From Capillimicrobium parvum (GTDB lineage Bacteria > Actinomycetota > Thermoleophilia > Solirubrobacterales > Solirubrobacteraceae): 64,000 bases of DNA. The position numbers were made by a program, and so were the translations under genes. The DNA lies in contig NZ_CP087164.1 of assembly GCF_021172045.1 (NCBI RefSeq), forward strand, positions 5,332,001 to 5,396,000, read 5' to 3'. Below the pieces are notes generated by a model. It did not search any database, was not told the DNA's origin, and was given only the letters and a program-made list of their open reading frames with translations. Below, in pieces: positions 6,595 to 14,071 of this stretch (position 1 is its first letter; each line of letters starts with the position of its first letter).

Positions 6595-8085
6595 GTGGCC
6601 GTCGCCGTCGCCGCCCAGAGCCGTCCCCGGATCCGCGTGCGCGCGATCCCGCGCCCACTGCGAGGGCTGCTCGTCGCCTGCACGCTGCTCAGCGTCGCGT
6701 GGGCGGTCGTCATGGCCCCGCTGCAGGGCCCCGACGAGCACAACCACGTCGGCTACGTCCAGCACCTGGCCGAGACCGGCAGCGGGCCCACGTTCGGCGT
6801 CACGGCCGGGGCGAGCTGGTCGCGCGAGCAGCAGGAGCTGCACAAGTGGGGCAACCTCCTCGCGCTGATCGGGATCGTCGACGCCCGCCCGGGCTACACG
6901 GGCATCGAGCAGCTGCGCTTCTCGCAGTACGAGGACCACCTGCCGGCGGGCGCGCGCAAGGACGGCAGCGGCCCGAACCCGGTCGGCCAGAACCCGCCGC
7001 TGTACTACGGCTACGAGGCGATCCCGTACTGGATCACGCGCTGGACCGAGCTGCCGACGCGGCTGCTGTTCATGCGGCTCGCGAACCTGCCGCTGTACCT
7101 GCTGATCGTCGCGTTCACGTGGCTGGCCGCCGGCGAGGTGTTCGGCCGCCGCCGCCGCGCCCAGACGATCGCCGCCGGCAGCGTCGGGCTCCTGCCGCAG
7201 CTCGCGTTCATGTCGGGCGTCGTGAACCCCGACATCCTGCTCACGACGGTCTGGGCGGCGTTCGCCTACGCGGCGCTCGTCGCGGTGCGGGTCGGGCCGA
7301 GACCCTGGGCGCTGCTCTCGCTCGGCGGGCTATCCGCGCTCTCCGTGCTCACCCACGGCCGCGGCCTGGCGATCATCGGCCCGCTGCTCATCGTGCTCGC
7401 GGTGCTGCTCTGGCGCGCGCGGCCGCTGCGGATGAAGGTGCTCGGCTGGGTCGCCGGGCTGTTCGGGACGCTGGCCGTGGGGCTCGGGCTCGCCGTCGCG
7501 TACTCCAACGCTCACGGCGGCGGGGCGTCGATCAGCGGCGAGGCGGCGTCGAGCACCGGCGCGGGCAACCTGTCGGGCTTCGTCTCCTACCTCTGGCAGT
7601 TCTATCTGCCGCCGCTGCGCACGATGAGCCCGCAGGGGCCGCCCTACGGCTACCGGCAGGTCTACATCGAGGGGCTCGCCGGCACGTTCGGCTCGCTCGA
7701 GATCCAGTTCCCGCTGTGGGTCTACGACGCGATGCAGTTCGCCGCCGCGCTCGGGCTGCTGCTGCTCGCCGGGATCATCGTGCGGCGCTTCGAGCGGCTG
7801 CGCGGCCACGGGCCGCAGATCGTCGTGCTGGCGAGCCTGGTGCTGTGCATGCTCGTCGTCCTGCACGTCTCGGCCTACCGCGACCTGCAGGGGCCGCCGT
7901 TCGATCCGCTGCTCGTCGGCCGCTACCTGTTGCCGCTGCTGCCGGTCATGGGGATCGCGATCGCGTACGTGTGCGTGAACCTGCCCCGGCGGGTCGGGTC
8001 GGCGCTCGGGGCGCTCGTCCTGACGACGTTCACGATCCTCGGCCTGTGCGGCCTCGGGCTGACGATCGCGAGGTTCTATGCGTAG
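6595..8085 (+). CDS. DUF2142-like polytopic membrane protein, copy 1
   Basis: A 496-residue integral membrane protein with about ten hydrophobic segments and a GTG start. The N-terminal part has PLQGPDEHNHVGYVQ, with the acidic DE pair just after the first membrane segment, as in GT-C glycosyltransferase-like proteins; the order matches DUF2142. QNPPLYYGYE near residue 140 and VGRYLLPLLPV near residue 440 are shared with the copy at 11821-13380, so the two are paralogues. It overlaps the next gene by 8 bp, making a fixed two-gene module that is present twice. The function is unknown; a membrane glycosyltransferase role is likely. Confidence 0.75.
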   Translation: MAVAVAAQSRPRIRVRAIPRPLRGLLVACTLLSVAWAVVMAPLQGPDEHNHVGYVQHLAETGSGPTFGVTAGASWSREQQELHKWGNLLALIGIVDARPGYTGIEQLRFSQYEDHLPAGARKDGSGPNPVGQNPPLYYGYEAIPYWITRWTELPTRLLFMRLANLPLYLLIVAFTWLAAGEVFGRRRRAQTIAAGSVGLLPQLAFMSGVVNPDILLTTVWAAFAYAALVAVRVGPRPWALLSLGGLSALSVLTHGRGLAIIGPLLIVLAVLLWRARPLRMKVLGWVAGLFGTLAVGLGLAVAYSNAHGGGASISGEAASSTGAGNLSGFVSYLWQFYLPPLRTMSPQGPPYGYRQVYIEGLAGTFGSLEIQFPLWVYDAMQFAAALGLLLLAGIIVRRFERLRGHGPQIVVLASLVLCMLVVLHVSAYRDLQGPPFDPLLVGRYLLPLLPVMGIAIAYVCVNLPRRVGSALGALVLTTFTILGLCGLGLTIARFYA

Positions 8086-8767
8086 CCGGCGCACGCTGTG
8101 GCTGCCGGCGGCGTGCGGGGCGCTGATCGTGCTCGCGCTGCTCGTCTGGGGCATCCCGTGGGTGACGAAGGAGCGCGCCGACGTCACCTCCACGCCGACG
8201 CCGCCCGCGTTCAGCACGGTCACGCCGATCACCCTGTCGCCCGGCTCGCGCGCGTGCGAGAGCTCGGTCGCGTTCAGCCCGCAGACCCGCTCGCTGATCC
8301 TCCTCGCCGCCAAGCAGGACGGGCCCACGCCGCCGCTGCGGATCACCGCCCGAGCCCCCGGCTACCGGGCGGGCGTGACGATCCCGGGCGGCTACGCGGG
8401 CCTCTCGTCGCTGGTCGCCGCGGTGCCGCCGCCGCAGGGCAGCGTCCTGGGCGAGGTGTGCGTCGAGAACGCAGGCCGGCGCAAGGTGCAGCTGCAGGCG
8501 ACGGCCGAGGGCCGCATCCAGAACCGGGCGACCACGAGCGTGGACGGCGAGCCCGTCCAGCCCAAGATGACCCTCCTGCTCACGGAGGGCGTCAACCGCT
8601 CGCTCGCCGACCGTCCCGGGGAGATCCTCGACCGCATCGCCGCGTTCAAGCCGCCGTTCGTCGGCTCGGTGTCGCTGGCGCTGCTGGCGCTGCTCGTGGT
8701 GGTGGGGGTGCCGGCGGGAGTCCTGTACGCGATCTGGCGCGGGCTGGCCGCGGCGGACGACGGGTAG
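8078..8767 (+). CDS. membrane-anchored partner of DUF2142-like protein, copy 1
   Basis: A 229-residue protein of unknown function. It has an N-terminal membrane segment (about residues 8-27), an extracytoplasmic domain of about 160 residues and a second membrane segment near residues 198-220. It therefore looks like a two-pass protein whose middle faces outside. The start overlaps the end of the DUF2142-like gene by 8 bp, suggesting translational coupling. The protein at 13373-14071 has the same layout and shared patterns such as PITLSPGSRACE against PLTLKPGQEACQ. It probably forms a complex with its upstream neighbour. Confidence 0.7.
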   Translation: MRSRRTLWLPAACGALIVLALLVWGIPWVTKERADVTSTPTPPAFSTVTPITLSPGSRACESSVAFSPQTRSLILLAAKQDGPTPPLRITARAPGYRAGVTIPGGYAGLSSLVAAVPPPQGSVLGEVCVENAGRRKVQLQATAEGRIQNRATTSVDGEPVQPKMTLLLTEGVNRSLADRPGEILDRIAAFKPPFVGSVSLALLALLVVVGVPAGVLYAIWRGLAAADDG

Positions 8768-11507: not shown

Positions 11508-11567
11508 CCGATGACAGACAACGCGCAACGAGGCTGAAGGTCGCGCGGATTCCGATTCGACACTCTA

Positions 11568-11730
11568 GTGGGTCTCCCGGGGGACGCTGTGCTCGAAATG
11601 CGGGGATGCCGGCGCCGCCAGGCAAGGACGCAGACCCGAAGGAATCCCTCTGGGATTTCGAGTGGTCGAGGACACAGCCTGGCGGTGATCGGCGCCCCGC
11701 ATATCGGGTGCAGCGTTCCCGGGGGCCCAC
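11568..11730. repeat. long imperfect inverted repeat, structured RNA or mobile remnant
   Basis: Within the 313-bp divergent spacer (11508-11820) the arms 11568-11623 and 11677-11730 are reverse complements over most of their length. Both begin GTGGG and end CCGCCAGGC when read inward, with matching ACGCTG, ATGCGGGG and GCCG blocks and a few mismatches and one- or two-base gaps. The loop 11624-11676 holds its own hairpin, AATCCC-TCT-GGGATT. No convincing gene lies in the element. It could be a small structured RNA, a MITE-like remnant or a transcription barrier between the divergent operons. Confidence 0.75.
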
Positions 11731-11771
11731 TGGCCACGGTGGGGGTCGGGACGCCTTTCGCCACCGTCTTC

Positions 11772-11820: not shown

Positions 11821-13380
11821 GTGGCCGGCGCCGAGCTGACGGCGCCGGCACCCCCGCGCGACTCCGCGCTGCGCCGCCGGCTGGCCGCGGCCGGGACCGC
11901 GGTGCGGCGCGTGCCGCGGCCCCTGGTCGCGCTCCTGCTGGCCGCGACCGTCCTCTCGGTCGCCTGGGCGGTCGTCACCGCACCGCTCGACGGCCCCGAC
12001 GAGATCGGCCACGCCGCGTACGTCCAGCAGCTGGCGGAGACGGGCGACGGCCCGCACGGCGGCGAGACCGGCACGCCCAGCGGTCCGCGCGACGTCTCGA
12101 CCGAGGCGCGCGCCCTGCTGTTCTGGGCCAACCTCGACGCCCTCGCCCGCAACGACGGAACCCGGCCGGCGTGGTCGCAGGCCGAGCAGGACGCGTACGG
12201 CCGCGCGGCGCGCGGCGCCGCCCGCGACGACGGCGCCGGGCCCAACCCGCTCGCCCAGAACCCGCCGCTGTACTACGCGTACGAGACGGTCCCCTACGCC
12301 GTGGGCAGCGGCTGGTCGCTGCCCGCGCGGCTGCTGCTCATGCGGCTCGCCAACCTGCCGCTGCTGTGGCTGGTCGTCGGCTTCTCGTGGCTGATCATGG
12401 GCGAGCTGTTCGGCCGCCGCCGGCGCTTCGTGCAGACGGTCGGCACCGGCGCCGTGGCGCTGCTGCCCATGGTCACGTTCCTGTCGGGGGTCATCAACCC
12501 GGAGATCGCGTTGACCGCGGTGACGACGGCGGCGATCGCGCTCGGCCTGGCCGCGCTGCGGCTCGGCCCGCGGGTGCCCGTCGTGCTCGGCCTCGGCGCC
12601 CTCGGCGCGGCCGGCGTCCTGATCCACGCGCGCGGTCTCGCCCTGCTGCCGGCGATCGCGATCGTCCTCGCGCTCGTCCTGTGGCGCGCCCGGCGCGAGC
12701 CCGGCGGCGGCCGGCGGTTGCTGGTGGCCGGCGGCGCGCTGGCGCTGATGGGCGTGGCGCTCGCCGCGGCGCTCGCCTACTCCAACCGCCATGCCGACGT
12801 CGGCAACTTCAGCGGCGAGCTGACCGGCTCCGGCTCCAGCGGCCTCACCAATCTCGGGGGGCTGGCGAGCTACGTCTGGCAGTTCTACTTCTCGCCGCTG
12901 GCGGGCATGCTGCCGCCGCCCGGGGAGGGCGGCGTCCCCGGTTACCGCCAGATCTACGTCCAGCAGTTCCTCACCGGCCAGTTCGGCTCGCTCGAGGTCC
13001 AGTACGGGGACACGGTCTATGCCGTCCTGCAGGTCGTGCAGGCGCTCGGCCTGATCGCCCTGTTCGCGCTCGTCGTGCGCCACCTCGGCCGCGTGCGCGC
13101 CCATGCCGCGCAGATCGTCGTGCTGGTGGCCTTCCTCGTCTCGATGCTGGTCCTCCTGCACGTCGCCGCATGGCAGGACATCAGCTCGCCGGCCCACGCC
13201 AGCCTGCTGGCCGGCCGCTACCTGGTCTGCCTGGCCGCGATCCTCGGGGTCGCGGTCGCGTCGGTCGTCGCGCTCCTGCCGCGACGCGTCGGCGTCGTGC
13301 TCGGCGCGTTCGTGCTGGCGACCGGCGCGGTCCTCTGCGTCGGCGGGATCCTCGTGAGCCTGGTGCGGTTCTATGCGTAG
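11821..13380 (+). CDS. DUF2142-like polytopic membrane protein, copy 2
   Basis: A 519-residue membrane protein paralogous to the 6595-8085 product. It shares the order of the acidic LDGPDEIGHAAYVQQL motif, QNPPLYYAYE, YVWQFYFSPL and LAGRYLVCLAAI, with about ten hydrophobic segments. The GTG start at 11821 is supported by GGAG 9 nt upstream; the ATG codons just before it are out of frame. The 3' end overlaps the next gene by 8 bp, exactly as in copy 1. A GT-C-like role in handling lipid-linked sugars is likely, but the substrate cannot be read from the sequence. Confidence 0.75.
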   Translation: MAGAELTAPAPPRDSALRRRLAAAGTAVRRVPRPLVALLLAATVLSVAWAVVTAPLDGPDEIGHAAYVQQLAETGDGPHGGETGTPSGPRDVSTEARALLFWANLDALARNDGTRPAWSQAEQDAYGRAARGAARDDGAGPNPLAQNPPLYYAYETVPYAVGSGWSLPARLLLMRLANLPLLWLVVGFSWLIMGELFGRRRRFVQTVGTGAVALLPMVTFLSGVINPEIALTAVTTAAIALGLAALRLGPRVPVVLGLGALGAAGVLIHARGLALLPAIAIVLALVLWRARREPGGGRRLLVAGGALALMGVALAAALAYSNRHADVGNFSGELTGSGSSGLTNLGGLASYVWQFYFSPLAGMLPPPGEGGVPGYRQIYVQQFLTGQFGSLEVQYGDTVYAVLQVVQALGLIALFALVVRHLGRVRAHAAQIVVLVAFLVSMLVLLHVAAWQDISSPAHASLLAGRYLVCLAAILGVAVASVVALLPRRVGVVLGAFVLATGAVLCVGGILVSLVRFYA

Positions 13381-14071
13381 GGCCGCGCTCGTCACGCTCT
13401 TCGTGGTGCTCCTCGTCGGCGCGTTCGCGATGGCGAAGCTGCTGCTGCGCGACCGCGTCGCCGTCACCGCGGTCGCGACGCCGCCGCCGATCATCACCGC
13501 CGAGCCGCTCACGCTCAAGCCCGGACAGGAGGCCTGTCAGCGCGAGGTGCCGGTCGATACGACCACGCGGGTCGTGCGGATCTACAGCGCGTCGCCGGTC
13601 CCCGACGTCCCGCGGCTGCGCGTGACGCTGCGCGCGCCCGGCTGGTCGCAGGAGGCGCTGTCGCCGCCCGGGCCCGGGCGGGGGACGGGCAGCGACGGCA
13701 TCTACGACACGCCGATCGACCCGCCCCGGCGCTCGGTGCTGGCCACGGTGTGCGCCTCGTCCGCCGGGGACCGCCCGGCGATCCTGGCCGCCTCACTGGA
13801 GGACCGCGTCCGGGCGCGGACGAAGACGCTCGTCGACGGCAGGGCGATCGAGCCGCGGCTGGGCATCGTCCTGCTCGAAGGACCCTCGCGGTCGACCATC
13901 TCCCGGCTGCGCACCGTGCTCGACCGCGCGGCCTTCTTCCAGGCCCCGATCGTGGGCTGGTTCTCGCTGGCGCTGCTGCTGGTGCTCGTCGTCGTCGCCG
14001 TCCCGGGCGCCGCGGTCTACGCGACGCTGCGGGCGCTGCGCGACGACGAGGACGCCGCCACGCGCCGGTAG
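13373..14071 (+). CDS. membrane-anchored partner of DUF2142-like protein, copy 2
   Basis: A 232-residue protein of unknown function and the counterpart of the 8078-8767 product. It has an N-terminal membrane segment (about residues 4-22), an external domain with paired cysteines (EACQ near residue 53 and TVCAS near 125), and a C-terminal membrane segment near 195-220. The 8-bp overlap with the upstream gene is conserved between the two copies. Divergence between the copies is substantial, so the duplication is not recent. Confidence 0.7.
   Translation: MRRAALVTLFVVLLVGAFAMAKLLLRDRVAVTAVATPPPIITAEPLTLKPGQEACQREVPVDTTTRVVRIYSASPVPDVPRLRVTLRAPGWSQEALSPPGPGRGTGSDGIYDTPIDPPRRSVLATVCASSAGDRPAILAASLEDRVRARTKTLVDGRAIEPRLGIVLLEGPSRSTISRLRTVLDRAAFFQAPIVGWFSLALLLVLVVVAVPGAAVYATLRALRDDEDAATRR

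What the first reader, a model, noticed from the sequence alone, without database searches (positions are those of the whole stretch)
11568..11730. Long imperfect inverted repeat with an internal hairpin
Arms of 56 and 54 bp pair over most of their length and enclose a loop with a further AATCCC/GGGATT hairpin. Several differences between the arms are single substitutions, yet pairing blocks are kept. It sits between divergent glycan operons and no gene explains it. It could be a new small RNA, a MITE or an insulator.
Basis: seen in the sequence. Interest (0 to 1): 0.7.

Follow-up and report, generated by a model that had tools for sequence, protein, structure and literature searches.

The report
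Transposable hairpin repeat with conserved RNA core
The long inverted repeat is one of about twenty copies, in this bacterium, of a short jumping DNA element that tends to land on the stop codons of genes and carries a folded, strand-specific hairpin conserved across a whole class of soil bacteria, which points to an undescribed structured RNA (or single-stranded DNA) module that spreads with such elements.

Summary
Window 11568-11730 is a 163-bp imperfect palindrome flanked by TA (11566-11567) and a decayed TA (TG, 11731-11732). It is not unique: the genome has about 19 copies with the core, plus copies without the core or with only fragments. About half of 299 sampled genomes of the class (76 of 114 genera) carry the core, some with 40-61 copies. 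The chassis is a non-autonomous MITE of IS630 type: TA at the ends (mostly CTAG), ends resembling those of IS630-family insertion sequences found in relatives, and empty sites at gap-pgk in same-genus genomes. In 32 of 53 copies with clear ends, the end coincides with a neighbouring gene's stop codon, which the element rebuilds as TAG. The unexpected part is the core: a stem with an invariant symmetric internal loop (AAGGACGCA / GAGGACRCM) and an inner hairpin whose sequence changes while its pairing is kept (21 of 24 pairs with double changes). The pairing is strand-specific: mispairs are G-U, not A-C (304:40), so selection acts on one single strand, probably RNA. The same core sits in elements with different ends. 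No Rfam family matches. What the core does is inferred, not shown.

The parts
11566..11567 (.). TA, left copy of the target dinucleotide (in context CTAG)
   Evidence: 40 of 53 copies with resolvable ends have CTAG on the left
11568..11623 (+). left arm: IS630-type terminal repeat GTGGGTCTCCCGG... running into the core stem ...GCCGCCAGGC
   Evidence: fold; similarity of this subfamily's ends to IS630 ends
11624..11632 (+). 5' strand of the conserved symmetric internal loop, AAGGACGCA
   Evidence: almost invariant in copies found by covariance model; model match 87.1 bits
   Evidence: sequence differs between genera, pairing kept
11668..11676 (+). 3' strand of the conserved internal loop, GAGGACACA (consensus GAGGACRCM)
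11677..11730 (+). right arm: core stem GCCTGGCGGTGATCGGCG... to the terminal repeat ...GGGGGCCCAC
11731..11732 (.). TG, decayed right copy of the TA target duplication
   Evidence: other copies have TA here
11605..11697 (+). core module matched by covariance model R2 (the only match in the window)
   Evidence: E 6e-20

Best explanation
It is a non-autonomous miniature transposon (MITE) of IS630 type that carries a conserved, strand-specific structured hairpin. Shown: it is repeated, ends in inverted repeats next to TA, a sister copy interrupts a site that is intact in close relatives, and its relatives' ends match those of IS630-family insertion sequences. Inferred: an IS630-type transposase acting in trans cuts it at the inverted repeats and inserts it at TA, mostly CTAG. 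Because the element begins with G right after the duplicated TA, insertion into the TA of a stop codon rebuilds TAG at both ends; this explains why it sits harmlessly at gene ends. Shown: the core keeps its structure by compensatory changes, and only one strand (here the plus strand) is preserved as a paired single strand. Inferred: that strand acts as RNA, forming a rod with a tandem G.A internal loop that a protein or RNP recognises. Pairing is kept more strictly between lineages than among copies within a genome, which suggests that the structure serves the element's own propagation or tolerance rather than each neighbouring gene. Confidence refers to MITE chassis plus selected single-strand structure; the MITE part alone I put near 0.9, the RNA (rather than ssDNA) reading near 0.6.
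For: About 20 copies at 75-93% identity in the genome, 19 by covariance model. TA/CTAG ends and terminal repeats. Empty gap-pgk site in three same-genus genomes. DDE_3 insertion sequences in relatives with ends TA-GTG(G/C)..C(C/T)TCTCG, 25/30 identical to the MITE end in the same genome. Stop codon at element end in 32/53, against 9% of non-coding TA and 34% of CTAG sites. Covariation: 95.1% cells paired vs 64.4% shuffled, score 0.745 vs 0.196, 21 of 24 pairs with double changes; independent alignment gives 90.7% vs 72.7%. Strand specificity: G-U vs A-C mispairs 304:40, 905:192, 180:54; plus-sense strand folds better in 88 of 95 representatives; within-genome changes 99:54.
Against: The window's own genome holds no DDE_3 transposase, so present mobility, or the helper, is not shown there. 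The window copy's left end alone does not match IS630 ends significantly; its sister copy (L017) and its right end do. Some core-bearing elements end in TGACGAG..CCGTCA without TA, so IS630 ends are not universal. The preserved strand is antisense to co-directional genes 79:30, unexpected for an mRNA element. No expression data were available.
Confidence: 0.75

Rival explanations
1. Plain DNA MITE: the palindrome is only a transposition relic and the core is passively carried filler, with arms kept alike by conversion between them.
For: Chassis evidence as above; copies without the core exist in the genome; within-genome copies decay with only a modest G-U excess.
Against: Conversion or dsDNA constraint does not explain a one-sided excess of G-U over A-C mispairs, better folding of one strand, near-invariant loop bases in copies from many genera, or the same core in elements with different ends.
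Confidence: 0.12
2. REP-like element moved as single-stranded DNA by a Y1 (RAYT-type) transposase; the preserved strand is the transposing DNA strand.
For: Strand-specific hairpin, location at gene ends, TAG or CGTC-like end tags as in GTAG/CGTC repeats (PMC3733652); G-T pairs are also tolerated in DNA (own knowledge).
Against: No Y1 transposase in the window's genome nor in G690, which has 61 copies; the element is about 165 bp with TA duplication, not 20-40 bp; ends match IS630.
Confidence: 0.07
3. The preserved strand is the RNA of a host-useful regulatory sRNA or mRNA element, for example a CsrA-type decoy (two ANGGA motifs in the loop), a terminator or a processing site.
For: Loop AAGGACG/GAGGACG resembles the CsrA motif (own knowledge); CsrA genes exist in this family, three in the window's genome; copies avoid divergent intergenic regions: 28 convergent to 11 divergent, background 95 to 108.
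Against: CsrA is absent from five genomes with 23-61 copies; orientation is mostly antisense to co-directional genes; neighbours are diverse.
Confidence: 0.06

Closest known systems
RUP of Streptococcus pneumoniae (107 bp, IS630-Spn1-related MITE)
   Same: Short non-autonomous repeat, TA duplication, ends like an IS630-family element, tightly folded (PMC2229807, PMC3049150).
   Different: RUP is A+T-rich and pneumococcal; here the element is G+C-rich, spread over a class, with a core shared by unrelated ends and strand-specific pairing.
ERIC / IRU (127 bp, enterobacteria) and Correia/NEMIS (107/155 bp, Neisseria)
   Same: Intergenic imperfect palindromes with TA at the ends; Correia also exists with and without an internal module, there an IHF-site insert (PMC2229807).
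   Different: No sequence relation was seen; the internal module here is a covarying hairpin, not a known protein site.
GTAG/CGTC-tagged REPs and RAYTs
   Same: Palindromes mostly downstream of genes, between unidirectional or convergent genes (PMC3733652).
   Different: REPs are 20-40 bp without TA duplication; Y1 transposases are missing from the window's genome and from the highest-copy genome.
IS630-Tc1/mariner insertion sequences (ISY100, IS630)
   Same: TA target, similar terminal repeats.
   Different: The element encodes no protein; none of the IS630 copies inspected carries the core.

Membership tests
MITE (IS630 type) | many dispersed copies, short, no coding capacity | tested here: met
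   about 163-166 bp, no conserved ORF
MITE (IS630 type) | terminal inverted repeats and TA duplication | tested here: met
   the window copy has TA left and TG right
MITE (IS630 type) | ends similar to an autonomous IS630-family element | tested here: met
   for relatives and for this subfamily (L017); weak for the window copy's left end; no such element in the own genome
MITE (IS630 type) | insertion polymorphism (empty sites) | tested here: met
   gap-pgk junction of sister copy L018; the window copy itself was not tested
MITE (IS630 type) | mobilisation in trans by the transposase | not testable with these tools
   needs an experiment
REP/RAYT | dedicated Y1 transposase in the genome | tested here: not met
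   none in G000 or G690
Any Rfam 15 family | score above the gathering threshold | tested here: not met
   only low-scoring miRNA-type hairpin matches
CsrA-binding RNA | CsrA present wherever the element is | tested here: not met
   absent from five high-copy genomes
Structured RNA | compensatory changes beyond controls | tested here: met
Structured RNA | transcript exists | not testable with these tools
   no RNA-seq available

The most novel reading that the evidence does not exclude
The core is an undescribed structured RNA module that acts in RNA form, perhaps as the recognition part of an RNP or as a propagation signal, and that has been passed between several unrelated miniature-transposon chassis across Thermoleophilia and some other Actinomycetota.
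Probability: 0.4. Interest if true: 0.82.

Novelty: new variant of a known kind. Interest (0 to 1): 0.62.

Why it matters
Bacterial MITEs are usually treated as DNA palindromes whose RNA folding is incidental. Here one strand's fold is conserved over a class and the same hairpin core recurs in elements with different ends, so something recognises it. That makes testable whether small bacterial transposons can carry RNA (or ssDNA) modules that promote their spread or make them tolerable. The stop-codon-rebuilding TA-G end also gives a simple account of how such an element can settle at gene ends without breaking genes.

Tried and rejected
Rfam at gathering and relaxed thresholds: nothing credible. 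Plasmid collection: no match. CsrA target: rejected as the general partner. REP/RAYT: rejected as the general mover. Exact-pattern scan of named genomes: 120 stretches, of which about 70 of 118 evaluated matches pass a hairpin filter; hits in Streptomyces, Nocardioides, Blastococcus, Prevotella and others lacked the hairpin and look like chance matches, many of them coding. Automatic end-finding by stem extension overshot in G+C-rich sequence and was not used. Literature searches found no description of this element; the library is incomplete.

Full report
Check of the observation. The inverted repeat is present at exactly 11568-11730. As + strand RNA the 181-nt stretch folds to -128.6 kcal/mol, z -9.9 against dinucleotide shuffles; the minus strand gives -95.9, z -5.0. 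The left end is preceded by CTA (TA at 11566-11567) and the right end is followed by TG, a decayed TA. The flanking genes are a family 2 glycosyltransferase (minus) and a DUF2142 membrane protein (plus), so the element lies between divergent genes. Rfam has nothing for it.

It is a repeat. A search of the whole 5.95-Mb genome gave 21 places; covariance model R2 gives 19 core copies. Two (window and 2689397) share the same outer ends ('type A'); most others have related but different ends (GTGGTTCGTCTCG...) around the same core. Three shorter palindromes without the core (2807974, 1721832, 3514309) show that core and ends are separable. In the family, 72 of 146 genomes have the core by model R1; in the class sample 156 of 299 genomes and 76 of 114 genera by model R2; in the phylum-wide sample 30 of 396, 15 of them outside the class. 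Copy numbers reach 61, 41, 40 and 30.

The chassis is an IS630-type MITE. Copies begin TA-GTGG and end CCAC-TA; among 53 copies with resolvable ends the flanking tetramer is CTAG in 40 (left) and 36 (right), and the median length is 166 bp. The gap-pgk gene junction, interrupted in this genome by one copy, is uninterrupted in three genomes of the same genus. IS630-family (DDE_3) elements of about 1.19 kb in relative G006 have ends TA-GTGGGCCTTCTCGG and TA-GTGCTCCGTCTCG; the MITE of that genome matches 25 of 30 terminal positions, this genome's type B ends 22 of 30, and the window's sister copy 20 of 30. The own genome holds no DDE_3 gene, so a lost or foreign helper must be assumed.

Stop codons. 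Only 9% of non-coding TA sites, or 34% of CTAG sites, lie in stop codons. The sequence explains why such insertions are harmless: the duplicated TA plus the element's first G restores TAG on both sides. Copies avoid divergent intergenic regions (28 convergent, 11 divergent; background 95 and 108); the window copy is one of the divergent exceptions.

The core. In copies found by BLAST and by covariance model, the loop strands AAGGACGCAG and GAGGAC are nearly invariant, while stems change. In a plain MAFFT alignment of 42 diverse copies, 10 stem pairs give 90.7% paired cells against 72.7% shuffled and covariation 0.473 against 0.151. In the model-based alignment of 63 copies, 95.1% against 64.4%, 0.745 against 0.196, and 21 of 24 pairs with changes on both sides; that alignment leans to the structure. 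The inner hairpin differs almost completely between genera yet folds. Invariance in the pattern-scan set is built in by the pattern and is not used; the models were partly trained on that set, so the loop invariance is not fully independent of it, whereas the BLAST-found set is. The consensus pairs GGAC with GGAC around tandem G.A, a stable RNA motif (own knowledge).

One strand is preserved. At stem positions G-U type mispairs exceed A-C type 304:40 in the inner arm, 905:192 in the outer arms and 180:54 in the inner hairpin, with a filter symmetric for both. The plus-sense strand folds better in 88 of 95 representatives less than 75% identical, median difference 20.6 kcal/mol, also for core and outer arms separately. 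A dsDNA palindrome or arm-to-arm conversion would be symmetric. Cells are not independent events, and a modest base skew of this strand (G 0.38, C 0.31) may contribute; a count of changes from consensus within four genomes gives 99:54, the same direction but weaker. I read this as constraint acting mainly on the copies that propagate. RNA is the simplest carrier; transient ssDNA is not excluded.

Orientation. The preserved strand is antisense to co-directional neighbours in 79 of 109 cases (p 3e-6, uneven between samples). It is therefore not a conserved mRNA element; sense insertions may be harmful, or insertion may be oriented. This is unexplained.

Different ends, same core. Besides the CTAGTG types there are core copies with CTAGGAGG.., TTAAGGGCCTGTCCAGAAAGT.., TAGAACTCGTTTCAGAATGA.. 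and TGACGAG..CCGTCA ends. The core therefore behaves as a module that is exchanged between, or acquired by, different miniature elements.

Verdict. The element is a MITE comparable to RUP, ERIC and Correia (PMC2229807, PMC3049150), and differs by its class-wide, strand-specific, covarying core. Function of the core is inferred.

Noticed in passing
window 6595-8767 and 11821-14071: Two copies of a gene pair (DUF2142 membrane protein followed by a short membrane-anchored protein) on either side of the element's neighbourhood.
   Followed up: partly
G000:C1:2807974, 1721832 and 3514309 (L034, L035, L213): Short palindromes with the same ends but no core; they could be precursors or deletion products.
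   Followed up: partly
L343 (G053, gap-pgk junction): An independent, decayed remnant starting TAGTGGTCGCCCATCTCG sits at the same gap stop codon as the copy in the own genome, suggesting repeated use of one site.
   Followed up: no
G690: L301, L306, L314, L319: Core-bearing elements with TGACGAG..CCGTCA ends that overlap or follow TGA stop codons, apparently always in one orientation; a second, non-TA chassis.
   Followed up: partly
L096, L140, L143, L149, L163, L168: A further recurring internal-loop pair outside the core, GCGAAAA / TTTGCAGCC, in several subfamilies.
   Followed up: no
G000:C1:1059394, 5549037, 58688: Three CsrA genes in this genome, and CsrA in the other Solirubrobacteraceae tested but not in the other families of the class tested.
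   Followed up: no
L277 and L050: Core copies clustered in tandem (100 bp apart in L277; three copies within 2.3 kb in L050).
   Followed up: no
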